DNA from: Tridacna crocea
Lineage: Eukaryota; Mollusca; Bivalvia; Cardiida; Cardiidae
Reading direction: 5' to 3'
Length of the DNA: 64,000 nucleotides
NCBI GenBank assembly: GCA_943736015.1
Contig: OX031073.1
Location: 22,099,210-22,163,209 of the forward strand
Part shown: piece by piece, positions 1,087 to 63,305 of the stretch
Position numbering within the stretch: position 1 is the stretch's first letter
Layout: each line of letters begins with the position of its first letter
Translations under genes and position numbers: made by a program
Notes under the pieces: model-generated
What the model was told of the DNA's origin: nothing
The model's database searches: none
Seen by the model: the letters and a program-made list of their open reading frames with translations, nothing else

Positions 1087-1306
1087 CTGTAACAATATTT
1101 TAGGCTTGTCCAAATCAAAAGCATAATTTGAAGATGACAAAATAAAAGTGACTGAAAATTTTAAATTTGTTTAGTGAAGGGTAGAAAACATTGTGGGGAA
1201 AGGAGAAAATGCTGGTTACCAGCATTTTCTCCTTTTCCCACAATGTTTTCTAAAGGGTTCTTTCTCAGGGTCATCAAAAGTAGGGATTATGTGGTAATGG
1301 TGTAAT
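1087..1306 (-). mobile_element. PAL-A MITE, R-core-L
   Basis: Full palindromic core (1189-1255); R arm degraded at the left end, L arm ends TATGTGGTAATGG. Confidence 0.75.
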
Positions 1307-1500
1307 CTCTTAGCGAAATTCTAGACCAGTCCAAATTTAAGCATTTCATACAATATTTAACAAATAATGGGACTCTCCTTTGAAAGGATAGAAAACATTG
1401 TGGGAAAAGGAGAAAATGCTGTTTACCAGCATTTTTGCCTTTTCCCACAATATTTCAAAAAGCTTTCTAACGGTTGTTAAAATTCAGGAGGCAAAGGATC
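1306..1500 (-). mobile_element. PAL-A MITE, degraded
   Basis: Abuts the previous copy. Core 1389-1455 with substitutions; both outer ends eroded. Confidence 0.65.
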
Positions 1501-1655
1501 AATTCTTTGCTGGATGGTAATATTTTCAGAGGCCTGTCATCATGTGACGTCAAATAATTTGGCAATTGTCATTTTATATAGTTGTTTAAAAAAGAAAATT
1601 AAAACAAAACAAAATCAGGAAAGAAGTAATTATTTGTTATTCACTGCAAAAAATC

Positions 1656-2183
1656 GTAGTCTCCATATAGAATAGTTCAGTGAGAGAATATCTTGGTTCC
1701 ACTAACAATACATACTACAGTAACATCTTTCCCAAGGAACAGTATTTTTGGCTTATGGTGTTATCCGTAATACAAGCAATATTTTGCACACAACTAATTA
1801 AAGAAGACTCCAGCGGTTGAATTTTTTGGCTTTGATATCATAGAAAAAATTGTGACAAAAGGTGTAAATGCCAGTTCACCTTTGCCTTTTCCCTCGGTGT
1901 TTTCTGAATGCCCTTATCCTAAATCTCAGAAATGTTCGCAAAAAGATTAATCCGAGTTAGATTCATAACTGATTCTCGAAAAAAATAACTATTTTGGTGC
2001 AAAGTATAGAAATAAAACATAGTGATGGTTGAAAATAAAAGCCACTGAAACAATGAGAGATTGTCTTTTTTAAGGCTTGACTAAACAAGTGGTCAAAGAT
2101 CAGAACACATGGGTTTAGCTATAGCAGAAGTGGTGGAATATAAGTTTAGTTTTCAATAACTGAACTATTCTATCTGGGACCGC
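1656..2183. mobile_element. Possible TIR element
   Basis: TAGAATAGTTCAGT near 1667 is inverted near 2160, giving imperfect terminal repeats around about 500 bp. A degraded PAL-B-like core (1840-1915) sits inside. No target duplication identified. Confidence 0.3.
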
Positions 2184-2388
2184 CATAACACTCCTGGTGA
2201 AATATTATTAACGGAGGCCAAGTTCTGGATTCCACATAGTGTGTGAGGAGAAATGATCATGTTGAATTATTTACCTTCTTCGTACAGTATATCTAGCTTA
2301 CGATTATACATTGAAACTGAAAACAAACAAAATTCAATAAATGAATAAAGAACTAACAGCCTTTGGTCGTCATCTGGGATAAAGAAGT

Positions 2389-2452
2389 GGACAGTGTGGA
2401 TAAGAGATCAGACTGCACATTCAGTGCAGTCTGATCTCGATCAAAACTGTCC
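2389..2452. repeat. GATCAGACTGCA hairpin, copy 1 of 10
   Basis: Inverted repeat whose arms read GATCAGACTGCAC and GTGCAGTCTGATC, with outer arms GGACAGT and ACTGTCC. The same hairpin recurs nine more times in the window. Confidence 0.8.
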
Positions 2453-2540
2453 ACATTGTGGGAGAGGTAGAAAAAACCTGGGTAGAAAAAACCTGAGGTA
2501 GAAAAAACCTGGTTACCAGCATTTTCTTCTTTTCCCAAAA
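2452..2540 (-). mobile_element. PAL-A fragment with expanded arm
   Basis: Partial core in which the motif GGTAGAAAAAACCT is repeated three times next to the palindrome tip. Confidence 0.55.
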
Positions 2541-2542
2541 TA

Positions 2543-2782
2543 TTGACTCTTTACCAAACAATCCTGATTTTTAACAACCCTAAGGGAGAAGCCTTTTAAA
2601 AACATTGTGGGAAAAGGAGAAAATGCTTGTAACCAGCATTTTCTCCTGCTACCACAATGTTTTCTATCCTATCAAAGACAAATGATCATAATTATGAGCT
2701 ACATTTACATTTATTTTGTTGTCTGCAATAATTGCTTTCAACTTGGACTGGTCTAAAATTACCTTGAGTGATAAAGAGTTGA
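2543..2782 (+). mobile_element. PAL-A MITE
   Basis: L arm CTCTTTACCAAACAATCC on the left, core 2602-2666, R arm on the right ending GATAAAGAGTTGA; flanking TTAA mutated to TTGA on both sides. Confidence 0.8.
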
Positions 2783-3130
2783 CAAAATTTTAGATGTGCC
2801 CAAATTGAAAGCACTAGTAAATGACAAATTAAACGTAACTCTAAAATTGAAATTTGTTTCCAGCAGGGTAGAAAACATTGTTGGAAAAGAAGAAAATGCT
2901 GGTTACAAAATATTTTCAAAAAAGCTTCTATCTCGGGGTCGTTAAAAGTCTGAATTGTGTGGTAAAGAGTAAATCCAACAATCCAATTTTTAAAACATTG
3001 TGTGAGAAAGACAAACATTCTGCTAACAAGCATTTTGCCCCTTAACCTTTTGTAGATGATGCTGATAACATGCATATTCTCATTCCCCAGCAATGTTTTC
3101 CATCCAATCAGAGATCTTTGACTAATTTGC
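2779..3130 (-). mobile_element. PAL-A copies, truncated and degraded
   Basis: R-first copy 2779-2975 lacks most of the second core arm (TGCTGGTTAC runs straight into ATATTTTC). It is followed by a strongly diverged copy to about 3130 that keeps only ends of the core. Confidence 0.6.
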
Positions 3131-3200
3131 ACCAATCTTTAAATTATCTTATTTCAGTTAAGGACTAACAAACTACTATTATTTCCAGTTTAAATGATTT

Positions 3201-3424
3201 TTAACCCTTTACCACACAATCTTGATTTGTAACAGCCTCGAGAAAGAACCCTTTTGAAAACCTAGTGGGAATAGGAGAAAGTGCTGATAGCAGCACTTTC
3301 TCCTTTTCCCGCAATGTTTTCCACCCAATCAAAGACAAATCTTCATTCGAGCCACATCTGATTTATCGTCTGCAAATGCTTTCAAGTTGGTCTTGTCTAA
3401 AATTAAGTGTGGTAAAGAGTTTAA
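3201..3424 (+). mobile_element. PAL-A MITE with co-varying core
   Basis: TTAA at both ends. Inner stem reads GAAAGTGCTG and CAGCACTTTC instead of the usual GAAAATGCTGG and CCAGCATTTTC: matched changes on both arms. Confidence 0.88.
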
Positions 3425-3528
3425 CTAATTCTGTCCAATAATCAAAATTTGTTAGTGTTGTCTTGTCACTCTCGTTCCTGAAAGTTATTTCCCTTGACTA
3501 AAGCATGCACAGTTCACCAATAGATAAC

Positions 3529-3757
3529 TTAACCCATTACCACACAATCCCTACTTTTGACGCCCCTGAGAAAGAAGCCTTTAGAAAACATTGTGGGAAA
3601 AGGAGAAAATGCTGGTAAACAGCATTTTCTCCTTTTCCCACAATGTTTTCCACCCTTCACAAAACAAATTTAAAATTTTCAGTCACTTTTATTTTGTCGT
3701 CTGCAAATGCTTTCAATTTGGACCAGTCTAAAATATTGTCGTTTGGTAATGGGTTAA
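3529..3757 (+). mobile_element. PAL-A MITE, young copy
   Basis: 229 bp with TTAA ends, CCCATTACC left and GGTAATGGG right. The core tip reads GGTAAACAGC, a mismatch shared only with the copy at 4059-4287, to which it is nearly identical. Confidence 0.93.
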
Positions 3758-3785
3758 TAAACCTAACAGACATTTAACTATTTAT

Positions 3786-3995
3786 CAATCAACAAATTTT
3801 TAGCCTGGTCCAAATTGAAAGCATTTTCCAATGACAATTTAAACATTAATCAAAACAAAAAAATTGTCTTTCAAAGGTAAAAAAAATTGTGGGAAGAGAA
3901 GAAAATGATGGTTACCAGCATTTTCTTCTCTTCCTACGATGTTTTCAAAAGCTATCTTCCTCAGGGTTGTTTTAAAGTCTGGATTGTAAGGTAAA
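3786..3995 (-). mobile_element. PAL-A MITE, degraded
   Basis: R-first copy; stem partly GGGAAGAGAAG and CTTCTCTTCC, so both arms changed together; ends eroded. Confidence 0.7.
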
Positions 3996-4058
3996 AGTAA
4001 AATAAAGCTTCTTTTTTCAATGACTAACTCATTTGGTGCTATGAAATCCTTACAAGCA

Positions 4059-4287
4059 TTAACCCATTACCACACAATCCCTACTTTTGACGCCCCTGAG
4101 AAAGAAGCCTTTAGAAAACATTGTGGGAAAAGGAGAAAATGCTGGTAAACAGCATTTTCTCCTTTTCCCACAATGTTTTCCACCCTTCACAAAACAAATT
4201 TAAAATTTTCAGTCACTTTTATTTTGTCGTCTGCAAATGCTTTCAATTTGGACCAGTCTAAAATATTGTCGTTTGGTAATGAGTTAA
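4059..4287 (+). mobile_element. PAL-A MITE, young copy
   Basis: Differs from 3529-3757 at one base that I can see (GAGTTAA for GGGTTAA). Flanks differ, so this is a second insertion or conversion rather than a larger duplication. Confidence 0.93.
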
Positions 4288-4348
4288 TTATATAAGTCTT
4301 GAGATAATCTAAATAATTGGAAATTCATGGTTCCTTTTGTCTGCTCCC

Positions 4349-4576
4349 TTAACCCTTTACCACACGATCCCGACTTTGAACGACCCTGAAAAAGAAGCCT
4401 TCTGAAAACATTGTGAGAAAAGGAGAAAACGCTGTAACCAGCATTTTCTCCTTTTCCCACAATGTTTTCTACCCTATCATAGAGAGAACTCATCATTTTA
4501 ACAACAGCGGAATTGTCGTCTGCAAATGCTTTCAATTTGAACCAGTCTAAAATTTTGTCTTGTGGTAAAGAGTTAA
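4349..4576 (+). mobile_element. PAL-A MITE
   Basis: TTAA ends; CCCTTTACCACACGATCCC left, TTGTGGTAAAGAG right; intact core. Confidence 0.9.
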
Positions 4577-4799
4577 GCAACATAGACAGTTTTGATCAAA
4601 GATCAAATAGCATATTTTGTCGAGTGGGATCTTGATCTAAACTTGCCCCAAAACTGTCGCAAAGCGGACAAATACCCTCTTACCAACACCTTGTTACTAA
4701 AGCAGGACAATCAGAGAATGGATGGACGGACCGACACATGTATGAAGTTTCAGAGTCCTAGGTCAAATGGCTTTTGAGTTTGACTACAGAAACATTTTC

Positions 4800-5650
4800 A
4801 CACAAAGTTCCCCTGTGACCTTTACCTTTGACCAATGTGACTCCAAAAATGACAGGGCACATGCTTGGGTCATTAGCAATGCCTCTATAAAAATTCAGGA
4901 CCCTGGGTCAATCAGCTATTGAGATAAGAATACCGAAACGTTTTTCAAACAAAGGTCATCTGTGACCTTGACCTATGACCCATTTGACCAAAATTATATG
5001 GCATCTCTTTGGGTCATAAGCAATACTTATATACAGATTCAGGGTCCTAGGTAAAATGATTTTTCAGTTATAGCACAGAAACGTTTTTCAAACAAAGTTA
5101 ATCTGTGACCTTGACCTATGACCCATTTGACCAAAATTACATGACACCTCCTTGGGTCATAAGCAACACTAGCATACAGATTCAGGATCCTAGGTAAAAT
5201 GATTTTTCAGTTATAGCACAGAAATGTTTTTCAAACAAAGTTAATCTGTGACCTTGACCTATGACCCAATTGACCAAAATTACATGACACCTCCTTGGGT
5301 CATTAGCATCACTTGTATACAGAACTAATTTTCAAACAAAGTTCATCTGTGACCTTGACCTATGACCCACTTCACTAAAATTACATGGCACCGCGTTGGG
5401 TCAGTAACAACACTTGCATACAGAAACAATTTTCAAACAAAGTTCATCCTTGACCTATGACCCACTTCACCAAAATTACATGGCACCTCCTTGGGTCATA
5501 AGCAACACTTGTACATAGAAACAATTTTCAAACAAAGTTCATCTGTGACCTTGACCTATGACCCACTTCACCAAAATTACATGGCACTTCCTTGGGTCAT
5601 AAGCAACACTTGTATACAGAAACAATTTTCAAACAAAGTTTGTGCCTCAA
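4800..5650. repeat. Tandem array rich in TGACCT half-sites
   Basis: About seven units of roughly 95-150 bp. Most units contain TGTGACCTTGACCTATGACC followed by a conserved TTGACCAAAATTACATGGCA-like stretch and TTGGGTCAT. A preamble starts near 4625 and the tail near 5700 has a GACAGACAGACAG run. Probably the tandem core of a Helentron-like or similar non-autonomous element; clear termini were not found. Confidence 0.75.
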
Positions 5651-6024
5651 ACATGTGACTCATACACAACAGGGCACTTCTCATACAAACATGGATGGAT
5701 TGGTGTACAGATGGCACAATTGACAGACAGACAGATATGATAAAACCAGTAAAACCCCTCTACTTCATAGGTGGGGGGGTTATAACAATACCTTTAAATA
5801 GCGCTCCCAGGATAGATATTAGTTCTAGCGCGGCCCAACCCCTTAACTAAATTCTTGATTACTACTATTGACACATAAACCATAATGTCTACCTTAAAAG
5901 TTCAACAATCATGTAATAACTAGTCTGAAAATAAAAACCAGTTCAAATCTTGAAAAACTAAGGGCATTATGACATGCAGAATAATCATATAGTCCAATCC
6001 ATGATCTAACTTTAACTCTTCACA

Positions 6025-6087
6025 AAACATCAACACATTAGACTTGTCCAAACTAAAAGCATTTCCAGACAACAAATCAAAAGTGAC
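6025..6087 (-). mobile_element. PAL-A R-arm fragment
   Basis: Contains GACTTGTCCAAACTAAAAGC and CAGACAACAAATC of the R arm, cut off by the next copy. Confidence 0.55.
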
Positions 6088-6300
6088 CTAACTCTTTACC
6101 ACACAATCCCTTCTTTTAACGACCATGAAGAAGACGGCTTTTGAAAACATTGAGGAAAAAGGAGAAAATGCTGGTAACCAGCATTTTCTCCTTTTCCCAC
6201 AATGTTTTCTACCTTTTATAAAGACAGAAATTATCATATTTGCAACATTTAATTTGTCATCTGCAAGTGCTTTCAATTTCATTGATTAGTAAAGGGTTAA
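6088..6300 (+). mobile_element. PAL-A MITE
   Basis: Left flank CTAA (altered TTAA), L arm CTCTTTACCACACAATCCC, core with GAGGAAAAAGG, right end AAAGGGTTAA. Confidence 0.85.
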
Positions 6301-6319
6301 TCAGTTGGATATGTCTATG

Positions 6320-6473
6320 ATGGAGAAGAAAACAGTAGAAAAATGCTGGTATTCAGCATTTTCTCCTTTTCACCCAATGTTTTCTTACAATCAAATGAGT
6401 AATATTTAATTTTGTCATCTGTAAATGCTTTCAGTTTGAACCAGTCTAACAGTGCTCTGTGATAAAAAGTTAA
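6320..6473 (+). mobile_element. PAL-A MITE, left-truncated
   Basis: Most of the L arm and the outer part of the first stem are missing; R arm complete to AAAAAGTTAA. Confidence 0.65.
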
Positions 6474-6513
6474 AAGATGTTTAGTATAAAATGTCCTTGA
6501 GTGCTTTCAACCT

Positions 6514-6912
6514 TTAAAGTAGTAGACCCCTAATACTTCTAGTGCTGCACTGCATAAACTTTTCTTGATAGTTGATTAATATGGTTTCATACAGGTATAA
6601 TACTTTTGCACATTTTTTAACGGACGAGAAATTTCTTTATGCCTATCTTGAAATTATTTGTAGATACTTTTGTTAGTTTCCAGAAAAGAAGGGTAATTAC
6701 TTGTCCAGAAAAGGAAGGTAATTACTATCTCTCTTTGTAATAAAAATATAGTGGTTTTAGATTTATAAATGATAATTCTAGAAAAGACAAAAAGGGAAAG
6801 GTGGCTTGGTTTAAGCAGTACAATAACACTCTTTTTTAATCATAGCAAATTTTGTACAATAATAATATCATTGTGGAAATAGCTGTTTTCTATTAGGGGT
6901 CTACTACCTTAA
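6514..6912. mobile_element. TTAA-flanked TIR element (GTAGTAGACCCC family), copy 1
   Basis: TTAA on both sides. Ends AGTAGTAGACCCCTAATA and inverted GGTAGTAGACCCCTAATA. Non-coding interior. Second copy at 52445-52814. Confidence 0.85.
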
Positions 6913-7004
6913 AAGCCCTCACTGAGATATTGCATAGAATATTACAATGCAGTAATCTAATTGCAAGATTACTAGAAAATTACTAGAAACATAACTAAGA
7001 CATT

Positions 7005-7194
7005 CAGAGCTCCAGATAAGGGAGTGATGGCATTCTAAATCCATAATTTCTCTTCCAAACCCTATGTTGTGGGAACTCATTAGAATCGTCTCAATAAGAC
7101 GATTCTAATGAGTACCCAAAACATAGGGTTTAATGCAGAATAATTAAAATTTTCAATTATGAAATCAAAATCACACCCTCTATCTGGAGCTCTG
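7005..7194. mobile_element. AGAGCTCC hairpin MITE, copy 1
   Basis: Termini CAGAGCTCCAGATA inverted at the right; central hairpin ATTAGAATCGTCTC / GACGATTCTAAT. Three other copies: 8982, 42133 and 56268. Confidence 0.85.
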
Positions 7195-7199
7195 ATCTT

Positions 7200-7829
7200 T
7201 TTTTTATCTAAGATGAAACAGCAAAAAGTATTTCCTGTTATAAAAGATGAAACAGTGAACAACTCTAATCAATAATATTTCACTTTTAACAATCAAACAA
7301 CAACTTTAAAACCATGTCCAGCCATGCCTATGATATTGTTTCCACAACTAATGGTTGCCAAGAAAAAAACAGTAAAAAAGTTCTAATAAAATAATCAAAT
7401 AAGCAAAATCTGTATAGTAAAAATCTAATTTTCTAAGCTGAGGAGAAAACAAACTGAAATGCAAATATACAACTCTTAGTACTAGTTTGTCAGCTACAGC
7501 CTCAAACTGATATCTCTCACGAAAGGGGCTGATTCTTTTACAGAACAAGAACCAGTCAAGTGGGACAGTAAAGATAAACACATGGACAGACAGTCAGACA
7601 GACAGACAGACAGACATAAATAAATGAATAAATCAGTGATCCATCTGCCCCTCAGCAAGGGATAAAAATAATAACAATAGAAGTACCACAAATAACAACA
7701 GAAGCACAGGTGCTTGTGTTTGGGTGCTTTTAATGGATCTACAATGGAAATTCTTAGTAACAAAAAATGGGGTGGGGCATAACTGAGTCGAAATGACTTT
7801 GATGGTAACCTGCCCAAATGGTATGACAC
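7200..7829. other. No gene; degraded interspersed repeat
   Basis: Short similarities between 7490-7690 and 8180-8480 (AAAGGGGC, CATCTGCC, ACAGACAGACAG run at 7594-7616) suggest an old repeat seen twice; boundaries unclear. Confidence 0.35.
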
Positions 7830-8027
7830 TTAACTCATTACCAACAGACAAAATTTTAGGTTTGTCCAAACTGAAAGCATTTGCAGACAACAAAATAAAA
7901 GTGACTGAAAAGTTGAATTTTGTTTTGTGAAAGGTAGTTACCAGCATTTTCTCCTTGTCCCACAATGTTTTCTATAGGTTTCTTTCTCAGGGTCATCAAA
8001 AGTGGGGATTGTGTGGTAAAGGGTCAA
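7830..8027 (-). mobile_element. PAL-A MITE lacking one core arm
   Basis: R and L arms complete with TTAA/TCAA ends, but the first core arm is gone: GAAAGGTAG joins directly to TTACCAGCATTTTC. The palindrome is abolished. Confidence 0.85.
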
Positions 8028-8356
8028 TCATTTGTCCAAGTTGGAAAGGAATATCTTCAGTAATAACAAAGTTTTTGCACCACAGCACAGCAATGCACAT
8101 GCAGACGACAACTGGGCTGTAACAATAACTCAACTTTTCCTCTGCAACAGTTGAGCTTAAAATTAAAGGAGCATATAAAGCTCTCTGTACCATTTTGTCA
8201 GCTATGCTGATATCTCCCATAAAAGGGGCATTAATGTATTTTTGTGCAGTTTCAAAATCAGTTAAGGAGACAGTGTAGTATACTGGTCTATCCCATACAT
8301 GTAAATGTAGCTGGATACAGGTATTTGGTGATATATCATGCCACCATATCGACATG

Positions 8357-8396
8357 TGGTTCAGTAGCTCAGTTGGCTTGGTTCCAACCCCGGTAT
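8357..8396 (+). repeat. tRNA-like remnant
   Basis: TAGCTCAGTTGG (A-box-like) lies close to GGTTCCAACCCCG (B-box-like), too close for a tRNA; probably a deleted SINE head. Confidence 0.3.
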
Positions 8397-8736
8397 TTTT
8401 TCACCACCTGTTACAATAGGATGGACAGACAATTGGAGAGACAAACACACAAAAACAATACCCATCTGCCTTTCAGTTGCAGACAATAACAACAAATACC
8501 AATAATGACTTAAAACACCAGACACTGTGTGAACACAGTATCTCTTGACATGCTGCATAAGAAGTGAGCTTAAAGCACAAACAGCAAAAGGGAGGTAAGT
8601 GCACTTATAATAAACTGCCTAGGGATATATTGCATACACAAATACTGTGCAATGAAAACAATAGCATGAATACTACTATATAAAACTGCTGCTTTCCCAC
8701 AAACAACAGACCAAAAATCTACAATAAAGCCACTGG

Positions 8737-8967
8737 TTAACTCTTCACCAAACATCAAAATTTCAGACCAGTCCAAACTCAAAGCATTTGCATACAGCAA
8801 ACTCCATAATAGCTGAGAGGATGAAATCGTCTTCAAATGGGTCCAAAGCATAGTGGCTAAAAGGAGAGAATGCTGTTTACCAGCATTTTTTCCTTTTCCC
8901 ACAATGCTTTTGAAGGCCTTCATCTTCAGAGTCATAAAAAACACAGTATTGTTTGGTAAACAGTTAA
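8737..8967 (-). mobile_element. PAL-A MITE, degraded
   Basis: TTAA on both sides; R arm recognisable, core imperfect (GGCTAAAAGGAGAGAATGC), L end GTTTGGTAAACAG. Confidence 0.75.
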
Positions 8968-8981
8968 AGGCAAGGTTGCAT

Positions 8982-9171
8982 CAGCTCCAGATAAGAGTGA
9001 GTGATGGTATTCTAAAGTCATTATTTCTCTTCCAAACCCTATGTTGTGGGTACTCATTAGAATCGTCTCGATGAGACGATTCTAATGAGTACCCACACCA
9101 TAGGGTTTAGTGGAGAAATATGAATGTTTTCCAATTTTGAAATCAAAATCACTCCCTCTATCCAGAGCTCG
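8982..9171. mobile_element. AGAGCTCC hairpin MITE, copy 2
   Basis: Central hairpin ATTAGAATCGTCTC-GAT-GAGACGATTCTAAT; outer ends CAGCTCCAGATA and TATCCAGAGCTC. Confidence 0.85.
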
Positions 9172-9226
9172 GGAACATGATAACTGTCAATCTACAGAAG
9201 CAAGAACTAGCTGTAGAACAGTCTAC

Positions 9227-9271
9227 CTGTGTCTAGCAGGTTATTGGTTTGGCCAGGCTCCTCTATATCAG
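9227..9271 (-). CDS. Candidate 45-nt cassette exon of the SLC4 gene
   Basis: On the minus strand ACAATTTACAG precedes and G|GTAGAC follows a 45-nt stretch that is open in the phase left by exon 5 and would add ADIEEPGQTNNLLDT with one base left over, preserving phase. It lies in one of the few repeat-free spots of this region. Related transporters have alternatively spliced cassettes at this point of the protein. No sequence homology supports it, so it is only a splice-signal and phase prediction. Confidence 0.35.
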
Positions 9272-9332
9272 CTGTAAATTGTACAAGTTATGTAATAATA
9301 ATATGTTAAATAATAGCCAATGGACGGTTATC

Positions 9333-9516
9333 AAACCTTTACCACACAGCAAAATTCCAGACTCAAAATCCAAAATCTAGAAACAGATTTGCAGCCAACT
9401 AATAAAATGTGGCTCAAATCTCTGGTAATCATCATTTTGTTCTTTTGGCACAATCTTTTCAAAAGACTTTTTTCTTGGGGTCCTTGAAACTCGGGATTGT
9501 GTTGAATGGGGTTCAA
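9333..9516 (-). mobile_element. PAL-A MITE, highly degraded
   Basis: Ends CCTTTACCACACAGC and GGGATTGTGTTGAATGGGG remain; core largely lost. Confidence 0.55.
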
Positions 9517-9518
9517 TC

Positions 9519-9735: not shown

Positions 9736-9736
9736 C

Positions 9737-9905: not shown

Positions 9906-9953
9906 AAAACAGCCTACAGGTACTTGGGGATACTACACTAGCCCAATAATCCT

Positions 9954-12544: not shown

Positions 12545-12553
12545 TTCACTCAT

Positions 12554-55250: not shown

Positions 55251-55254
55251 GTGT

Positions 55255-56030
55255 AATTTTCACAAAATCTGACAAGAAAGACCGACTTTATTGTGTAAAC
55301 ATGAATTAGAAATTTTCAACTTGAAAGGGCTATTTTTCCCATACCATTTGTTGGATTTTTTTCAAAATCAATAAGGTTGAAGCTATTGATGAGATACACA
55401 AACTGTGCAAGTTTCACAAAAAACTGACCACAAATACAGACTTTACCATGTAAACAAGAATTAGAAATTTTCAACTTGAAATGGCTACTTTTCCCATACT
55501 ATTTGTTGGATTTTTCTCAATATCAATAGGGTTGAAGCTATTGATGAGATAAACAAACTGTGCAAGTTTCATGTAAATCTGACCACAAATGCAGACTTTA
55601 TCGCGTAAACAAGAATTTGAAATTTTCAACTTGAAATGGCTACTTTTCCCATACTATTTGTTGGATTTTTCTCAAAATCAATAGGTTGAAGCTATTGATG
55701 AGATAAACAAACTGTGCAAGTTTCATGAAAATCTGACCACAAATGCAGACTTTATTGCGTAAACAAGAATTTAAAATTTTCAACTTGAAATGGCTACTTT
55801 TCCCATACTGTTTGTTGGATTTTTCTCAAAATCAATAGGGTTGAAGCTATTGATGAGATAAACAAACTGTGCAAGTTTCATGAAAATCGGGCAACAAATA
55901 CAGACTTTATCACGTAAACAAGTAAAAGACTAACAGACGGACAGACGGATGGCAGACAGACAGACAGACGGACGGACGGATACCATGCCATGACATAAGC
56001 TCTGCTGGCTGAAAGCCAGTAGAGCTAAAA
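55255..56030 (+). mobile_element. Helentron-like element type 2, 3' part
   Basis: Units of about 160 bp (ATACTATTTGTTGGATTTTT; AAACTGTGCAAGTTTCA), then GACAGACGGACAG repeats and the 3' hairpin AGCTCTGCTGGCT-GAA-AGCCAGTAGAGCT followed by AAAAA. Confidence 0.72.
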
Positions 56031-56035
56031 ACATC

Positions 56036-56190
56036 ACGGAACGGGGAGAAAATGGTGTTAAGTAATGTTAACCCAGGCATATTTTCAAAAGCCTCAACAT
56101 GGGCATTAATTCTTTATCAAACAACAAGATTTTAGGTATGTCCAAGTTAAAAGATGCCGCAGGCGACCGATATGATAAAAACATTTTGAA
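56036..56190 (-). mobile_element. PAL-A fragments
   Basis: GGGGAGAAAATGGTGTTAAG with half core, then R-arm end TTCTTTATCAAACAACAAG. Confidence 0.5.
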
Positions 56191-56267
56191 TCTTGTATAC
56201 AGTCATGTTTGTTTACATTAGTTTGACAGCAAAGTAGTTCAGACACCACAGATTTTTTTTCATGGAG

Positions 56268-56476
56268 CCAGAGCTCCTGAGATACGAGGGAGTAATGGTA
56301 TTTTAAATCCATTGTTTCTCCTGCAAACCCTATGTTGTGTGTACTCATTAGAATTGTCTCATTAGAATCGTCACAATGAGACGATTCTAATGAGTACCCA
56401 TATCATACAGTTTAGTGGGGGGAATAATTAATATTTTCAATTTTGAATACAAAATCACTCATATCTGGAGATCTGT
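56268..56476. mobile_element. AGAGCTCC hairpin MITE, copy 4
   Basis: CCAGAGCTCCTGAGATACG left, ATATCTGGAGATCTG right; extra partial stem copy (ATTAGAATTGTCTC then ATTAGAATCG). Confidence 0.8.
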
Positions 56477-56705
56477 CATCATAAAGCATGAATTCTTTTT
56501 TCAGCCAATCAGAACTTGTCAATATTTACGAAAACAACTAATATTGAATAATTCAAAAAACATTCACAGACAGAATTAGGAAAACACACAATCAATATTA
56601 TTAGAATGAATGATTCCTGGAACTTCTTATCAGATCAAGTTAATTATGGCTTCAAGGATCAACTCCTTTAACGGTCATCTTAACAACCACTGGCGTAACC
56701 AGTCT

Positions 56706-56900
56706 TTAACTCTTTAAAAGCCTATTGAAAACATTGTGAGAAAAGGGGAAAATGCTGGTAACCAGCATTTTCTCCTTTTCCCACAATGTTTTCTACCCTG
56801 TCAAAGAATGATTGCATCATTTGAGCCGTGCTGAAATTTTCATCCACAAATGCTTTCAATTTGGACAAGGCTAAAATTTTGTCATGTGGTAAAGGGTTAA
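56706..56900 (+). mobile_element. PAL-A MITE, L arm internally deleted
   Basis: TTAACTCTTTAAAAGCC joins the tip of L to its inner end; core and R arm intact. Confidence 0.87.
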
Positions 56901-57128
56901 CACATTACCAAACGACAATATTTTAGACTCGTCCAAATTGAAAGCATTTGCAGACGAAAAAATAAAAGTGACTGAAAATTTGGAATTTGTTTTGTGAAGG
57001 GTAAAAAACATTGTGGGAAAAGGAGAAAATGCTGGTTACCAGCATTTTCTCCTTTTCCCACAATGTTTTCTTTCTAAAGGCTTCTTCCTCAAGGGCGTCA
57101 AAAGTAGGGATTGTGTGGTAAAGGGTTA
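56897..57128 (-). mobile_element. PAL-A MITE
   Basis: Shares TTAA; near-perfect core; TTTCTTTCTAAAGG small duplication. Confidence 0.9.
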
Positions 57129-57504
57129 AGGAATCTGCTAGACGAAATGTTATGGTAGCAACAGTTACAATCTCCCTGAAAAACGTATCAAAGTAACAAC
57201 GTTGATGTAAAGAAGTCAGCAGAAAAAAGTACCTACAAGTCAACATCTTTCTATCAACATCTTCAAGGATATCATTGAACCATGCTCTAAAAAAAGGGGG
57301 ACTAATGCATTTGCAAAAAGTATCAACACATATCAGCCAGCGCAATTCGTGCAGATTTTCAAGGGTCAACACTTTTTTTTTGGTTTTGTAAATGATCTGC
57401 ATGTCAAAGGACCAGTCTACCTCCCAAATCCAGTCGATTTGCAGGCTAAATAGATTTTACAGGTCCATAATTTACGTGTCAAGTTGCTTGATATAATATG
57501 GTAC

Positions 57505-57733
57505 TTAACCCGTTCCCGAACAATCCCTGGTTTTTACGACCCCGAGATATAAGCCTTTTGAAAACATTGTGGGAAAAGGAGAAAATGCTGGTAACCAGCA
57601 TTTTCTTCTTTTCCCACAGTGTTTTCTACCCTTCACAAAACAAATTTTAATTTTTGAGTTACGTTTATTTTGTTGTCTGCAAGTGCTTTCATTTTGGACC
57701 AGTCTAAAATTTTGTCGTTTGGTAAAGAGTTAA
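57505..57733 (+). mobile_element. PAL-A MITE, GGTTTTTAC variant
   Basis: CCCGTTCCCGAACAATCCC left; intact core; TTAA ends. Confidence 0.9.
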
Positions 57734-57886
57734 AAAGCAAGCCCCCCTTGTTTCAGAGCATGGCTTATTTGTTTCATAAAGCTGGCACATACCAAGAGAG
57801 ACAGCATGATCGAATAATGGCATCTTTTCTGTGGGAAGGATAATAATCTACTGGAAGTTTCTAAAACAGCCCAATCATAACCCTTA

Positions 57887-58113
57887 TATTCTTTACCACA
57901 CAATCCTGACTTCTGACAACCCTGAGAAAGAAGGTTTTTGAAAACATTGTGGGAAAAGGAAAAAATGCAGGTAACCAGCATTTTCTCCTTCCCCCACAAT
58001 GTTTTCTATCCTTCATAAAACAAGTTTCAAATTTTCAAACACTTTTATTTTGTCCTCTGCAATTGCTTCTGATCTGGACTAACCTAAAATTTTGTCTTTT
58101 GGTAATGAGTTAA
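57887..58113 (+). mobile_element. PAL-A MITE
   Basis: Left flank TATT, right TTAA; core near-perfect. Confidence 0.87.
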
Positions 58114-58139
58114 TGAACAATCATGTGTTATAACAATTT

Positions 58140-58313
58140 TGGAGAAGATGGCTGTTGCAAATATGGTGGAAAAAGGAGAAAATGCTGGTAACCAGCATTT
58201 TCTCCATTACCCTCCATGTTTTCAACTTTATCATAGACACAAATCATAAACTGAGTGACATTCATGTTGTTGTCTGTGCAAATGCTTTCAGTCTGATTGA
58301 GTCTAAAATTTTA
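58140..58313 (+). mobile_element. PAL-A MITE, truncated
   Basis: L arm lost; core with AATATGGTGGAAAAAGG; R arm to CTAAAATTTTATTG. Confidence 0.7.
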
Positions 58314-58636
58314 TTGAAATAAAACAGGTGGGGTGTATAAATGACACGCAAACTGTAACCCATGGTTACCAATCATAAAACTATCAAATTTAAAATCAAC
58401 AAATTTAAATTCACATTAGAACAAAAAAAAGATCTCATCTCAAAAGTGTTTACAAAATTAAACAGCACCTAGATATCTCAATCACTTTGATATGTAATTC
58501 AATCTCAATTTGGGATGTAATTTGACTCTTAGAATGCCATATATAGCCTACAAACATTTTGTTTCTAGAGATAAGCCCGAAATAATTAAACTTCAATGAC
58601 TTTACTTTAGTCCGGAATGCCACAGCAAAGTGAGAA

Positions 58637-58700
58637 TGTGCAGATCAAAGATCAGACTGCACATTTTGTACACTTCATCTTGACCTGCACTAGCTGCAAA
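58637..58700. repeat. GATCAGACTGCA hairpin, copy 8
   Basis: GATCAAAGATCAGACTGCAC; the second arm has a deletion (ACACTTCATCTTGACC). Confidence 0.65.
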
Positions 58701-58725
58701 GGCAGCTGCATTGGTGACAAACCCT

Positions 58726-58954
58726 TTAACTCTTTACCACACAGTCCCGACTTCAAACGACCCTGAGAAAAAAGCCTTTTGAAAACATTGTGAGAAAAGG
58801 AGAAAATGCTGGTAAGCAGCATTTTCTCCTTTTCCCACAATGTTTTCTACCCTTCCCAGAACAATTTTCAATTTTTCAGTCTCATTTATTTTGTCGTGTG
58901 CAAATGCTTTCAATTTGGACAAGTCTATAATTTTGTCATTTGGTAAAGAGTTAA
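58726..58954 (+). mobile_element. PAL-A MITE
   Basis: TTAA ends, intact core (GGTAAGCAGC tip). Confidence 0.9.
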
Positions 58955-59167
58955 AGGTATTATGAAATGTTGGCAGTTGAATATAAAATTAATCTGCAAT
59001 TTACTTTTCAATTTCCAATAAAAATTTCCTTTCAAATGGAAAACTAACAAAAACAACTGACAGCAATATGTGCAAGATCTGGGCAAAAACGTGAAAAACA
59101 ATCATACGGAAAAACTGAAAAAAAAATCCTATCTCAAACAGGAATGAGCAGTACCATTGCATACTAG

Positions 59168-59220
59168 TAATTTTTTACCAAATGACAAAATTTCTCACTT
59201 GTCCAAAATGAAAGCATTAA
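59168..59220 (-). mobile_element. PAL-A R-arm fragment
   Basis: TTTACCAAATGACAAAATTT then CTTGTCCAAAATGAAAGC, ending at TTAA of the next copy. Confidence 0.65.
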
Positions 59221-59427
59221 CTCTTTACCAAATGACAGAATTTCAGACTGGTCCAAACTGAAACCCTTTCCACACAACAAGAGTCATTAGATTCAAACAC
59301 TGAAATTTCTAGTGGAAATTAATGGTAGGAATCATTGTGAGAAAAGGAGAAAATGCTGGTAACCAGCATTTTCTCCTATACCCTCAATGTTTTCAAAAGC
59401 TTTCATTTCATGAGGCCTTTTCAAACT
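59217..59427 (-). mobile_element. PAL-A MITE
   Basis: TTAA left; core ATCATTGTGAGAAAAGG; L arm decayed. Confidence 0.78.
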
Positions 59428-59708
59428 AGCAACCAGCATTTTCTCCTTTCCCTACGATGTTTTCTTCCTTTGCCACTTTATCCATCATTTCAGCCCTTTA
59501 CATGTACCAGACAATCTCTGGTTTCCATGATGCTGAAAAAGGTGTTTGAAAACATTGTAGGAAAAGGAGAAAATGTTGGTTATACCAGCATTTTCTCCTT
59601 TTCCCACATTGTTTTCTACCCTATTAGAGTCCAAAAGCTAATTTATAACAATTCTGAATTTGTCATCTGCAGAATGATGCTCAAAGTAAAACTGTTGGGA
59701 AAAGTCTA
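59428..59708 (+). mobile_element. PAL-A half core followed by a degraded copy
   Basis: AACCAGCATTTTCTCC alone at 59430, then a copy 59494-59708 with core tip GGTTATACC. Confidence 0.7.
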
Positions 59709-59711
59709 ATT

Positions 59712-60297
59712 GTGGTATTTGCTGAAGACAATACCAATACGAGTTCAATATGAATTTTGATGGCCATGTACCGTATTTTGTGCAAAGCTGAAGGAAATAA
59801 ACCTAATTAAACTCAAATTTCTCTGGCAAATGAGTTCTTCGGTAGTATTCAGATATAAAATTGGAAATGGCACGTTAAAATACACTAGGTGAGGCCATCG
59901 ATCATGGAAATACTACTTTTTTACTAAAAATTACTTCACTCACTCATAGCCTTGTATTGGCGCATTGCTACAAAATTTCTTCTACCAACTGCTTGGTCCT
60001 GAGGTTCAAAATCATAGTTTTCAGGTACAAACTTAATCCTATTCTGTGTACTCACATGGTTTCTCTCAATATCCATCACACATCCTACTGCCAAAAGTTA
60101 CACATGACTCCTCCTCATGATCAAAGGGAGGCCACCAATACACAAATAATCCTAATTTTGTCATGAGTACTCTCCTTTCAACCAAACCAGGCATTCACTT
60201 GCTTAGTAGGTTGATTTTCAAGCCAATATTTGAATAATATTGCTCTTTTTCTTTCAAACTATCAATTCTACACAATGGCTTCCTTGGCAAATACCAC
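59712..60297. mobile_element. TIR element (GTGGTATTTG), copy 2
   Basis: GTGGTATTTGCTGAAG left, CTTGGCAAATACCAC right; inverted relative to the copy at 40761. Confidence 0.75.
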
Positions 60298-60298
60298 T

Positions 60299-60700
60299 TC
60301 AGCGTTCTCAATGCTTTGATTTTTTTTGTTTGGAAATGGTTCATTTGTGATCTAGGTTCATGGATTTGTCAATTTCAGGGACAACACTGATTGATACAAC
60401 CTTTATTACTGTTCGTGTATATTCAAGTAGGTCCTCGAGACTGTCACGAGATAACATCATTAGTTGGTTGGTTGTATTGGGGTTTTAACGCCACATTACT
60501 TCAGCGTTCTCAATGCTTTGATTTTTTGTTTGGAAATGGTTAATAATTATGTGACCTAAGTTCATGGGTTTGTCGATTTCAGGAATGACACTGATTGAGA
60601 CAACCTTCATTACTGTTTGTGTATATTCGAACTAGGTCCTCGATACTGTCACGAGATAACATTAGTAGTTGGTTGGTTGTATTGGGGTTTAATGCCACTT
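60299..60700. repeat. 202-bp tandem duplication
   Basis: TCAGCGTTCTCAATGCTTTG starts units at 60299 and 60501. Each unit ends in the 3' end of SINE-2 (GTTGGTTGTATTGGGG). Confidence 0.88.
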
Positions 60701-60915
60701 TAACAGCTAAGGTCATATCATGGCGGTCGGTGAAGCACACGTTTTTTCCTGGCTTTCTCATACCAGTACTAACACAACTTTCTTTCCAAACTACTTTTCT
60801 CACATGCTTCAGCAGAGGTGAGAGGCAAAAATATGCTGGAGAGAAAGTTCGCCTCAACAAGGTATCGAACTCACAACCACCAGATCATGAGTCCGACATG
60901 CTCACCACTGAGCCA
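60664..60915 (-). mobile_element. SINE-2, copy 2
   Basis: GTTGGTTGTATTGGGGTTTA left (tail), body, tRNA-like head ending TCACCACTGAGCC. Aligns along its length with 27510-27774. Confidence 0.85.
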
Positions 60916-60928
60916 TGATGATGATGTA

Positions 60929-61154
60929 TTCACCCATTCCGAAACGACAAATTTTGGACTCTTCCAAACCGAAAGAGTTTGCAGATGACTATTTTAGATT
61001 TGGAGAAAATGGCAGAAAGTTCTGAAAAAAGGTAGAAAACAGTGTGGGAAAAGGAGAAATTGCTTGTTACGAGCAATTTCTCCTTTTCCCACACTGTTTT
61101 CAAAAGACTTTTACTGCAGACACGTAAAAACCAGGGCTTGTTTGGGAAAGGGTG
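60929..61154 (+). mobile_element. PAL-C MITE
   Basis: CCCATTCCGAAACGACAAAT left, TTTGGGAAAGGG right; matched stem change CAGTGTGGG / CCCACACTG; tip GCTTGTTACGAGC. Confidence 0.9.
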
Positions 61155-61322
61155 ACTATTTTAGATTTGGAGAAAATGGCAGAAAGTTTTGAAAAAGGTA
61201 GAAAACAGTGTGGGAAAAGGAGAAATTGCTCGTTACGAGCAATTTCTCCTTTTCCCACACTGTTTTCAACAGACTTTTACTGCAGACACGTAAAAACCAG
61301 GGCTTGTTTAGGAAAGGTTTAG
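61154..61322 (+). mobile_element. PAL-C second unit, left end missing
   Basis: GACTATTTTAGATTTGG follows the first unit's right end directly; the core tip is now perfect (CTCGTTACGAG). Confidence 0.9.
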
Positions 61323-61548
61323 CGATGATCAGCCTATGTCATGTTTTCTGTTTACAGACTGTTAATAAACTTGGTTTTCCAAGCCTAGAATGGGAACAAA
61401 ACGATCAAGTGAATGAAAGTTTGTCGGGGGTCATTTCTGTCATGATCCAAATAAAAAGTTTCTGAAGTATGAATCCCTACCTAAACCTATCCACAGTCTT
61501 CCCCCCCCCCCCCGACCAAAACATTAAACACAGGTATCTCTTTGTTAG

Positions 61549-61744
61549 GCCTTGAAAGCATTTGCAGATGACAAAATAAATGAAGCTCATAATTTATCAT
61601 GATTTCTGTTTTTGATATAGTAGAAAATATTGTGGGAAAAGGAGAAAATGCTGGTCACCAGCATTTTCTCCTTTTCCCACATTGCTTTCAAAGGTCTTCT
61701 TGTTCAGGGTCATTAAACATCAGGATGTTGTGGTACAGGGTTAA
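61549..61744 (-). mobile_element. PAL-A MITE, left-truncated
   Basis: R arm starts within GAAAGCATTTGCAGATGAC; perfect inner core (GGTCACC tip). Confidence 0.83.
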
Positions 61745-61971
61745 CTCTTTACCACACGACAAAATTTTAGACTGGTCCACATTGAAAGCACTTGCAGACG
61801 ACAAGATAAACATAACTCAAAAATTGAATTTTTTTTTAACAGAAGGGTAGAAAACATTGTGGGAAAAGGAGAAAATGCTGGTTACCAGCATTTTCTCTTT
61901 TTCCCACAATGTTTTCTGAAATGCTTCTTTCTCAGGGTTGTTAAAAGTCAGGATTGTGTGGTAAAGACATA
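61741..61971 (-). mobile_element. PAL-A MITE
   Basis: Shares TTAA; near-perfect core; right end GTAAAGACATAAG. Confidence 0.88.
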
Positions 61972-62380
61972 AGACATTCATTCAACAAAAACCTTGTTAC
62001 AGAATAACAATAAATGAACTTACTGACACAGTACAGGAAATTCCAGTGTCTTCAGTTTCCTTATGTATTCCTAATTAGTTACAGCACAACATCCCACCTG
62101 CTGTCAGTTACATCCACAACAAAATAGATAATTAAAGAACAGGAACAGCTTTCAACTATATAACTGTTTACTGTTCTCCTATGAATTCTACAATCAAGAT
62201 CTATGGCAATTAATACTTTACAAACCTTCATCCAAATATTACATAATTCAGATATCAAATCCACTGCAACAAATGTTTGCTGTACCCTTATTTTGCCAAA
62301 ATACATAACATGGACTTAGTAATTCAGTACTAAAGATGCAATTTTAGAGCATTTTTTGCCCAAATATTTAGCATGAAAGC
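61972..62380. other. No recognisable feature
   Basis: AT-rich, open frames short and without recognisable similarity. Confidence 0.45.
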
Positions 62381-62446
62381 AGACAGTGAAGATCCAAGAT
62401 CAGACTGCACATTCTGTGCAGTCTGATCTTGGGTCTACACTGTCCA
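62381..62446. repeat. GATCAGACTGCA hairpin, copy 9
   Basis: GATCAGACTGCACATTCTGT, then GCAGTCTGATCTTGGG; near-perfect stem. Confidence 0.82.
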
Positions 62447-62743
62447 AACAAGCTATTAAATCCAAATTCAACCCTTTGAGAGTTTAAAATCAAAACATAG
62501 TTGACCTACTAAAGTGTACTTTCGTCATTGAGACTCCTCGCATTCATGAGAGTGCATCGTGGCATACTGTTCTCAAAACCTGATAATCAATACGGAGAGT
62601 TCAGCCTGTTTTCTAAGGCCAATTACACCCTCGAGAAGGATCCGACTCATTCTTCTTATCTCTCTGTACCCACAGACAAGCTTTTACAAATCTCTCATCA
62701 TCACAAAAGCTTTCTCCAGATTTACTCAAGTAGAAATAGCCTC

Positions 62744-62973
62744 TTTACTCTTTACAAAACGACAAAAATTTTAGGCCAGTCCAAATTGGAAGCATTTGCA
62801 GACGACAAAATAAATGCGACTCAAAATTTGAAATTTGATGTGGCAAGGGTAGGAAACATTGTTAGAAAAGGAGAAAATGCTGGTTACCAGCATTTTCTCT
62901 GTTTCCTACAATGTTTTCTAAGCTTTCTTTCTCATAGTCGTTAAAAGCCGAGATTGTGAGGTAAAGAATTGAC
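62744..62973 (-). mobile_element. PAL-A MITE
   Basis: CTCTTTACAAAACGACAAAA left; core ACATTGTTAGAAAAGG; ends GTAAAGAATTGA. Confidence 0.85.
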
Positions 62974-63074
62974 AAATTTTCCAACTCAATAACTAGAAAA
63001 TCTTGGATTCTATAGTGAAAACCCAAAGATTGATATTTCAAAGTTCTGTTTTGAGGAACAATATCTCCTTCTCG

Positions 63075-63141
63075 GACAGTGTAGATCAAAGATTAGACTG
63101 CACATTTTGTGCTGTCTGATCTTCATCTACACAATCCACAA
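63075..63141. repeat. GATCAGACTGCA hairpin, copy 10
   Basis: GATCAAAGATTAGACTGCAC, then GCTGTCTGATCTTCATC; followed by TTAGCAGCCTAGGGGTCAA as after copy 6. Confidence 0.78.
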
Positions 63142-63176
63142 AAGGTCAGTGAGTCGGGCTTAGCAGCCTAGGGGTC

Positions 63177-63305
63177 AACTTTTTTCCAAACAAACTCAAC
63201 TTTTAACAGCCCGAAAGAAATAGTTTTGAAAGATGGTGGGAAAGGGGAAGATGTTGGTAACCAGCATTTTATCCTTTTCCCACCATGTTTTCTACCCTAG
63301 AAAGA
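63177..63305 (+). mobile_element. PAL-A MITE cut by a Helentron-like element
   Basis: L arm and core with matched GATGGTGGG / CCCACCATG change; stops after TTTTCTACCCTAG. Confidence 0.8.

What the first reader, a model, noticed from the sequence alone, without database searches (positions are those of the whole stretch)
1087..63305. About 100 copies of a palindrome-cored, TTAA-targeted MITE superfamily (PAL) fill the window
Each copy has a 67-bp nearly perfect palindrome at its centre, flanked by two unrelated arms, L and R, between TTAA sites. Copies occupy roughly a third of the window. A central palindrome much longer than the terminal repeats is unusual for piggyBac-like MITEs, which normally have short TIRs only. 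The single central base (A in L-first, T in R-first copies) marks orientation. I do not recognise this family by name.
Basis: partly seen in the sequence, partly recalled or inferred. Interest (0 to 1): 0.85.

Follow-up and report, generated by a model that had tools for sequence, protein, structure and literature searches.

The report
Million-copy mobile element with central palindrome
About a fifth of the sampled parts of this animal genome consists of a roughly 230-base jumping element that inserts at TTAA sites and carries a mirror-image DNA hairpin whose two halves changed together when new lineages of the element spread, which suggests that the hairpin shape helps it multiply.

Summary
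The window has 98 cores of a 67-bp near-perfect palindrome inside ~228-bp elements covering 35% of it. It is not local: 22% of 190 kb taken elsewhere in the genome is the same family, 208,145 exact inner cores are counted genome-wide, and I estimate 0.9-1.0 million palindrome-bearing copies.

Ends read TTAA-CCCTTTACCA...TGGTAAAGAG-TTAA. One clean single-TTAA empty site and two imperfect ones were found, PAL nested in PAL. Five piggyBac families of this genome have 12-13-bp CCC-type inverted ends at TTAA, but none has PAL's ends, so the transposase donor is unidentified.

New here: the palindrome varies 6-9% between copies, the arms 21%. Subfamilies B-D keep the palindrome through compensated changes at five stem pairs. 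An unrelated TTAA family (P7) has another 66-bp palindrome 105-110 bp from one tip. Dead copies mutate nearly independently in the two palindrome arms, so I read the compensation as selection on spreading lineages. The closest published kind is the coral CMITEs. How the palindrome acts is unknown; a DNA fold-back aiding end pairing is my preferred guess.

The parts
1090..63309 (.). Extent of the PAL hits in the window (123 non-overlapping profile hits, 60 full length, 34.8% of the bases)
   Evidence: nhmmer with the 229-bp profile, reversed control 0 hits; first and last hit
3529..3757 (+). Well-preserved full PAL-A copy: TTAA, L arm, 67-bp palindrome at 3584-3650, R arm, TTAA
   Evidence: second in the printed profile table; exact TTAA at both ends
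4059..4287 (+). Well-preserved full PAL-A copy, palindrome at 4114-4180
9954..10645 (+). Three PAL-A copies in a row, neighbours overlapping at a TTAA (9954-10181, 10179-10402, 10402-10645)
   Evidence: also seen as a tandem repeat of period 225
43068..43294 (+). PAL-A copy inserted inside another PAL copy; the joined flanks align without gap to an uninterrupted PAL (77%), whose TTAA lies one base off
26445..26672 (-). PAL-A copy nested in another PAL copy at the edge of the palindrome; the joined flanks align to PAL at 89.7%, the relative reads TTGA where TTAA lies here
22183..22411 (+). Subfamily B: arms unlike A; palindrome GAAAACATTGTGGCAAAAGGTGAAATTGCTCGT-N-mirror at 22238-22304
   Evidence: ends
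18045..18273 (-). Subfamily B copy, palindrome 18152-18218 with 33 of 33 pairs; right end reads TTGA
   Evidence: ends counted from the printed flanks
38825..39044 (+). Subfamily C: different arms; palindrome with ...AGGAGAAATTGCTC... core at 38870-38936
36992..37220 (-). Subfamily D: core as in C plus a compensated pair 8 (CACTGTG/CACAGTG)
35935..36142 (-). P7-family element: different 66-bp palindrome (36040-36105), long arm 105 bp, short arm 37 bp, TTAA-type ends
39129..39317 (+). PAL copy with most of one palindrome arm missing; one of 20 short-core copies among 190 arm-anchored ones

Best explanation
PAL is a non-autonomous, piggyBac-type (TTAA) MITE superfamily of about 210-230 bp, moved in trans by cut and paste. 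Its ~66-bp palindrome is a cis-acting part that spreading lineages keep; copies that lose it stop multiplying. I think it most likely acts as DNA structure: the palindrome extrudes as a hairpin or cruciform and works as a hinge or fixed fold, letting the two tips of a stiff ~228-bp element meet in the transpososome. Shown here: TTAA flanks with one clean empty site, ends of piggyBac class (L tip) in a genome with many piggyBac genes, a palindrome more conserved than arms and tips, compensated changes, near-constant spacing to the long-arm tip in four families, and no palindrome-less group in the sample.
For: Insertion: 93 of 162 full copies have exact TTAA at both ends; clean empty site at L013:8261-8488, near ones at window 43068 and 26445. 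Ends: five piggyBac families of the same genome have 12-13-bp CCC-type TIRs at TTAA. Conservation: per-site mismatch is palindrome 0.062-0.087, tips 0.113 and 0.152, arms 0.211 and 0.213 in 185 copies; at A/T sites alone 0.056 against 0.176 and 0.193. In copies found by their arms alone, the 93 cores of exactly 67 bp differ from the consensus by 0.048 on average. Compensation: stem pairs 8, 14, 21, 26 and 31 show 21, 19, 15, 29 and 21 complementary double changes in 218 cores against 4.3, 4.2, 1.9, 4.4 and 3.2 expected; the other 28 pairs sum to 43 against 29.9. Pair-8 C-G falls in at least two places on a tree built from the arms alone. Spacing: long arm 107, 107, 108 and 110 bp in A, B, C and P7; compared without tips, their arms show no clear similarity (highest z 3.2, A-C short arm; the other 11 comparisons 1.2 or less). 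Seven of 27 P7 matches have candidate ends giving long arms of 105-110 and short arms of 37-44 bp. Necessity: of 190 arm-anchored copies, 93 have a core of exactly 67 bp and 20 a core under 58 bp, all 20 different.
Against: No element with CCCTTTACCA ends and a transposase was found; ends of only 10 of 20 piggyBac loci were assigned, and PF13843 counts are lower bounds. The R tip mostly begins CT, not CC. Nothing tests hairpin extrusion or transposition. Within A-D the palindrome sequence itself is conserved, not only its symmetry, which also fits a protein-binding site. One-sided changes exist at the five pairs too (for example 24 and 24 at pair 8, 21 and 22 at pair 14). Dead copies carry a small mirror excess (124 observed against about 84 after correction by the non-mirror control). 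Only five compensated pairs carry the case inside A-D. The short arm varies (55, 55, 45, 40 bp), so only the long-arm distance is near constant, over four families. In 20 of 27 P7 matches the ends were not found at those places. Some short-core projections rest on partial arm hits.
Confidence: 0.5

Rival explanations
1. The palindrome is a two-fold symmetric binding site for a dimeric protein (the transposase's cysteine-rich domains or a host factor); both half-sites change together when the protein's specificity changes.
For: piggyBac and piggyBat cysteine-rich-domain dimers bind palindromes within about 120 bp of a transposon end (PMC11707139, passages read). A piggyBac in this genome (F3) has the palindrome GCGTCCCCTTTTGGGGACGC just inside one tip. 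The palindrome sequence is more conserved than the tips within PAL-A. PAL's palindrome starts 40-55 bp from the L tip, within that published range.
Against: The published sites are 14-19 bp; here symmetry extends over 66-67 bp. P7 has the same layout with a palindrome that shows no clear similarity (stem z -0.5 to 2.0 against A-D), though it could be bound by another protein.
Confidence: 0.27
2. The palindrome matters as RNA: transcripts fold into a 33-bp hairpin (pri-miRNA-like or siRNA source) that affects the element or its host.
For: As RNA the seven palindrome types tried, some idealised by hand, fold into one hairpin at -51 to -65 kcal/mol. A 33-bp stem is close to a pri-miRNA stem (recalled).
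Against: No Rfam family reaches its gathering score in the window. The main type at four of the five compensated pairs is a G-C/C-G or A-T/T-A swap, which cannot pass through a G-U intermediate. No expression data were available.
Confidence: 0.12
3. No selection: mirrored changes come from template switching or gene conversion between the palindrome arms (quasipalindrome correction).
For: A mirror excess exists in background mutations: at pair 29, 124 doubles against 33.5 expected from singles. Locally, without the five pairs, the mirror ratio is 1.39 against 0.92-1.36 at twelve other offsets.
Against: The one non-mirror control counted already gives 117 and 111 against about 46 each, so the mirror-specific excess is about 1.5-fold, too weak to make subfamily variants two-sided. 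It also does not explain why the palindrome changes about three times less than the arms or the near-constant spacing.
Confidence: 0.1
4. PAL belongs to another TTAA superfamily (Kolobok) or to an unknown transposase class.
For: Kolobok also duplicates TTAA, and its KolobokP lineage is rich in bivalves (PMC9587614). PAL's own donor was not found, and no Kolobok transposase was searched for here.
Against: Kolobok ends are 5'-RR...YY-3' (PMC9587614); PAL ends begin CC or CT in most copies, like the piggyBac elements of the same genome at the L tip.
Confidence: 0.05

Closest known systems
CMITE families of Acropora corals (PMC2872659, parts 1-3 of 4 read)
   Same: piggyBac-type MITEs with TTAA duplications and CCCTTT-type ends; an internal region more conserved between families than the TIRs; several families with different ends sharing one core; tandem copies; internal region proposed to help transposition.
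   Different: CMITEs are ~100 bp, about 1,600 copies in A. millepora; 'palindrom', 'hairpin', 'cruciform' and 'stem-loop' do not occur in the paper's main text. PAL is ~228 bp, near a million copies, and its core is a 66-67-bp palindrome with compensated changes.
piggyBac elements of this same genome (F2, F3, F5, F6, F7)
   Same: TTAA sites and 12-13-bp inverted ends starting CCC; F5 and F6 start CCCTTT.
   Different: Their TIR sequences differ from PAL's beyond the first bases; they carry transposase genes.
MADE1 (PMC1784062, search listing only) and palindromic TTAA elements of C. elegans (recalled, no call)
   Same: Short palindromic DNA spread as a mobile element.
   Different: There the whole element is the palindrome (recalled); here it is an internal module between two non-palindromic arms.
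piggyBac/piggyBat end palindromes bound by cysteine-rich domains (PMC11707139, passages)
   Same: Palindromic DNA as a functional part of a piggyBac-type element, within about 120 bp of an end.
   Different: 14-19 bp, imperfect in piggyBat; no compensatory change mentioned in the passages read.

Membership tests
piggyBac-type MITE | TTAA target site, duplicated on insertion | tested here: met
   93 of 162 full copies have exact TTAA at both ends; one clean and two imperfect empty sites
piggyBac-type MITE | Short TIRs starting CC(C/T)T | tested here: inconclusive
   L tip begins CC in 110 of 162 full copies; R tip begins CC in 50 and CT in 89; consensus tips CCCTTTACCACAC and CTCTTTACCAAAC
piggyBac-type MITE | Small, homogeneous, no coding capacity | tested here: met
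   median 227 bp, 5-95% 211-237 in 162 full copies; longest closed ORF in the window 159 aa; ORFs were not run against family libraries
piggyBac-type MITE | Autonomous piggyBac partner sharing the ends | tested here: inconclusive
   118 PF13843 matches, a lower bound; 20 loci examined, ends assigned for 10, none with PAL ends
Kolobok | 5'-RR...YY-3' ends at TTAA | tested here: not met
   L tips mostly CC, R tips mostly CT or CC; rule from PMC9587614
CMITE-like (internal region conserved above TIRs) | Internal region more conserved between families than TIRs and arms | tested here: met
   0.062-0.087 against 0.113/0.152 (tips) and 0.21 (arms)
CMITE-like (internal region conserved above TIRs) | Sequence homology to the coral core | not tested
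   the published 60-bp coral core was read but not aligned to PAL
microRNA-type hairpin | Match to a described RNA family | tested here: not met
   0 Rfam matches at gathering score in the window

The most novel reading that the evidence does not exclude
Palindromicity itself is a selected cis-element of a DNA transposon: a ~66-bp DNA fold-back set at a near-fixed distance from one tip lets very short elements synapse their ends, and it has been kept or rebuilt, with compensated substitutions or wholly different sequence, in separate TTAA families, helping one of them reach about a million copies and a fifth of the genome.
Probability: 0.3. Interest if true: 0.82.

Novelty: new variant of a known kind. 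Interest (0 to 1): 0.62.

Why it matters
MITE success is usually put down to their tips and to a borrowed transposase. Here an internal DNA structure appears to be under selection, with the compensatory pattern normally used to prove RNA stems. If it works as DNA shape, it would help explain how elements only slightly longer than DNA's stiffness length pair their ends. The abundance alone (22% of the sampled genome from one family, near a million copies) makes it a large part of this animal's genome.

Tried and rejected
(1) Ongoing gene conversion as the main cause of mirrored changes: the mirror double at pair 29 looked 3.7-fold enriched (124 against 33.5), but the one non-mirror control was itself 2.4-2.6-fold enriched (117 and 111 against about 46), so only about 1.5-fold is mirror-specific. 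(2) The palindrome as an independently mobile insert in palindrome-free L-R elements: no paired orphan L and R arms were found (0 pairs from 11 L and 23 R orphans, same strand, within 400 bp); the 20 short cores look by eye like deletions. (3) Kolobok membership: end rule not met; no Kolobok transposase search was run. (4) A partner with CCCTTTACCA ends: not found in the 20 loci read. (5) RSS/Transib-like heptamer CACAATG in the palindrome (motif recalled): noticed, judged post hoc and too short to count. (6) Species: chromosome lengths do not match Tridacna derasa (PMC11490831, table passage), though 18 large contigs and ~1.05 Gb resemble it; T. maxima passages (PMC11700175) were no help; unresolved. 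(7) Exact PAL core and a degenerate P5/P7 core in IMG/VR: 0 hits each. (8) Four core words in the held papers: 0 papers. (9) Joined flanks that match a junction of two PAL copies (several of the 22) do not show which copy came first and are not counted as empty sites.
Full report
WHAT IS THERE. The window has 98 places that match a 67-bp core at 40 or more positions; at 38 or more there are 102 in the window and none in one shuffle. A profile of it finds 123 non-overlapping hits in the window (60 full length) covering 34.8%, with 0 hits in reversed sequence.

IT IS GENOME-WIDE. The window is C18:22099210-22163209 of a 1.049-Gb assembly with 18 large contigs. In nineteen 10-kb stretches taken at fixed positions (18 at 10 Mb, one at 20 Mb of C1; a twentieth did not exist), the same profile covers 22.1%. 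The exact inner 29-bp core occurs 208,145 times in the whole genome, 0 times read backwards, that is 198 per Mb against 216 per Mb in the sample, so the sample looks representative. With 41 exact cores for 185 palindrome-bearing hits in the sample, about 0.94 million palindrome-bearing copies follow; direct scaling of 185 per 190 kb gives 1.02 million. Counting error on 41 alone is about 16%.

INSERTION. Of 162 full copies, 93 have exact TTAA at both ends. The joined flanks of 161 were searched in the 254 kb held; 22 had a match spanning the junction outside the copy itself. The clean case is L013:8261-8488: its joined flanks match a PAL L arm reading ACTTTTAACGAC with one TTAA. At window 43068-43294 the joined flanks also restore a PAL arm, with the relative's TTAA one base off; at 26445-26672 they restore a PAL at 89.7%, but the relative reads TTGA there. 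Several of the rest are junctions of two PAL copies, which do not show which copy came first, and some are weak chance-like matches. So TTAA duplication is shown by one clean case, supported by the flanks of many.

WHICH TRANSPOSASE. The Pfam family DDE_Tnp_1_7 (PF13843) has 118 matches in this genome, a lower bound. I read flanks of 20 of these loci (both sides of nine, upstream only of eleven). Five families have both ends: F2 CCCTATCCTCCAC (13 of 13 identical), F3 CCCATTTATGCCT (13 of 13), F5 CCCTTTATATAC (12 of 12), F6 CCCTTTCAGYGC and F7 CCCTWGTCATGC (11 of 12 each), all at TTAA; five more loci share the F5 or F7 left end; ten were not assigned. PAL's L tip CCCTTTACCA is of this class but matches none of them; its R tip is CTCTTTACCA in consensus, with CC in 50 and CT in 89 of 162 copies. 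So 'piggyBac-type' rests on TTAA and the L tip, not on an identified donor.

THE PALINDROME IS THE CONSERVED PART. In 185 full copies, mismatch to consensus is 0.062 in the inner palindrome, 0.087 in its outer parts, 0.113 and 0.152 in the tips, 0.211 and 0.213 in the arms; at A/T sites alone 0.056 against 0.176 and 0.193. That set was found with a profile containing the palindrome; in copies found by arms alone, the 93 cores of exactly 67 bp differ by 0.048 on average. Since mutations after insertion should hit all parts alike, the palindrome value is an upper bound for them, and the rest of the arm divergence should predate insertion: lineages diverged in the arms while keeping the palindrome.

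IT CHANGES IN MIRROR FASHION BETWEEN SUBFAMILIES. Subfamilies B (for example 22183-22411), C (38825-39044) and D (36992-37220) carry palindromes that differ from A at stem pairs 8, 14, 21, 26 or 31 on both sides. Over 218 cores these five pairs show 105 complementary double changes against 18.0 expected from the column frequencies; the other 28 pairs show 43 against 29.9. One-sided changes occur at these pairs too, and 20 double changes there are not complementary. On a tree from the arms only (183 copies), pair-8 C-G copies fall into at least two separated groups (minimum 8 changes for 16 copies, 15.5 when shuffled); pair 26 needs 2 changes for 13 copies. The main type at four of the five pairs is a G-C/C-G or A-T/T-A swap. 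The L arms of A, B, C and P7, with the tip and the last 8 bp removed (those share a CTTTTG-like motif next to the palindrome), show no convincing similarity (A-C z 3.2, others 1.1 or less), nor do the R arms without tip (z 1.2 or less), while the A-D stems match at z 14-21.

A SECOND FAMILY WITH THE SAME LAYOUT. A different palindrome (P7, CGGACAGTGTAGATC...) sits in TTAA elements such as L006:5567-5782, found by its tips rather than its palindrome. In A, B and C the long arms are 107, 107 and 108 and the short arms 55, 55 and 45. P7 stems are not similar to A-D stems beyond chance (z -0.5 to 2.0) but are weakly similar (z 4.7) to P5, a palindrome in a repeat without TTAA ends as far as I read.

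TIP-ANCHORED VIEW. Searching for pairs of TTAA-type tips 120-400 bp apart gave 203 pairs: 172 contain a PAL-like core, 2 another palindrome and 29 none; of the two, one is P7 and one a PAL copy with a shortened core; many of the 29 look like chance pairs or PAL copies with deletions.

IS THE PALINDROME NEEDED? Copies found by their arms alone (190 with both arms): 93 have a core of exactly 67 bp, 23 of 66 and 14 of 68; 20 have a core under 58 bp, all 20 different, and 9 have one over 76 bp. Deletions of 6 bp or more number 20 in the palindrome of 185 copies, about 1.7 times the rate per base in the arms, and are longer (up to 36 against 17 bp, no significance test). So copies with a damaged palindrome arise but, in this sample, form no group.

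A CONTROL THAT CHANGED MY VIEW. Genome-wide, the mirror double at pair 29 occurs 124 times, against 33.5 expected from 2651 and 2628 singles and 208,145 intact cores. That looked like strong arm-to-arm correction. But a non-mirror double (pair 29 on one side with pair 28 on the other; singles 3580 and 3624) occurs 117 and 111 times against about 46 each (this includes a small tandem cluster at C3:4532765-4533348). Old copies simply carry more changes. The mirror-specific excess is about 1.5-fold; locally 1.39 against 0.92-1.36 at other offsets. This rests on one mirror and one non-mirror pair; the other planned counts did not complete. Dead copies therefore mutate nearly independently in the two arms, and two-sided subfamily changes are better explained by selection on lineages able to spread.

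HOW IT MAY WORK. Cut and paste by a piggyBac-type transposase acting in trans. For the palindrome I prefer a DNA fold-back: a ~228-bp element is only slightly longer than DNA's stiffness length (about 150 bp, recalled), so a cruciform or hairpin between the arms could act as a hinge for tip pairing. It accounts for symmetry kept while sequence changes, the near-fixed distance to one tip, and recurrence in P7. Neither palindrome model is tested here.

WHAT IS KNOWN. The coral CMITEs (PMC2872659, parts 1-3 of 4 read) are the nearest kind: piggyBac-type MITEs with an internal region more conserved between families than the TIRs and of unknown origin. 'palindrom', 'hairpin', 'cruciform', 'stem-loop' and 'central' do not occur in its main text. 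The Kolobok end rule is from PMC9587614 (parts 1-2 of 6). The rows shown by the paper searches held no title or abstract start describing PAL; several searches had more papers than rows shown. Passages on bivalve TEs (PMC10294476) mention piggyBac and MITEs, and the text holds neither 'TTAA' nor 'palindrom'. Subscription papers, Repbase and Dfam were not searched, so the family may already have an entry.

LIMITS. Subfamily arms and some palindromes used were typed or idealised by hand from printed copies.

Noticed in passing
window 7061-7127, 9038-9104, 56343, 42223; L003:8559, L008:6285: Another repeat (P2) with a ~67-71-bp near-perfect palindrome (CCTATGTTGTGGGTACTCATTAGAATCGTCTC...) between arms with GAGCTCCAGATA-type inverted ends; no TTAA seen by eye.
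   Followed up: partly
window 41514-41580 and 41641; L002:6084, L007:1723 and others: P5 repeat with a 67-bp palindrome (GCGTAAAGTGCCGTC...CAGCCTGCGCAG...), weakly similar to the P7 palindrome (z 4.7); copies differ by paired changes.
   Followed up: partly
L007:367-433 and L003:1369-1435: Two 67-bp palindromes (P3; 33 and 30 of 33 pairs) in different flanks that differ from each other at several mirrored positions.
   Followed up: no
PAL-A, B, C and P7 short arms: A CTTTTG or CTTTG motif stands directly at the start of the palindrome on the short-arm side in all four families compared, though the rest of the arm is unlike.
   Followed up: no
window 4734-5640, 23843-25635, 49232-50562, 51766-52444, 55246-55922, 63704-64000: Tandem arrays with periods 143 (and 101), 145, 167, 165, 155 and 156 bp; the first carries GTGACCTTGACCTATGACCC-like text.
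   Followed up: no
window 60986-61317: 166-bp tandem duplication (96% matches) whose two units carry subfamily-D palindromes with 32 and 33 of 33 pairs.
   Followed up: no
C7:38462639 piggyBac (F3), left tip in L024/L056: A piggyBac element whose left tip is followed by the palindrome GCGTCCCCTTTTGGGGACGC, a possible binding site of its own transposase.
   Followed up: no
G000:C3:4532765-4533348: Tandem row of five PAL inner cores sharing the same two non-mirror changes, spaced by multiples of about 69 bp.
   Followed up: no
window 1-64000: No closed ORF over 159 aa and no Rfam match at gathering score; the window looks gene-poor, but ORFs were not compared with protein families.
   Followed up: partly
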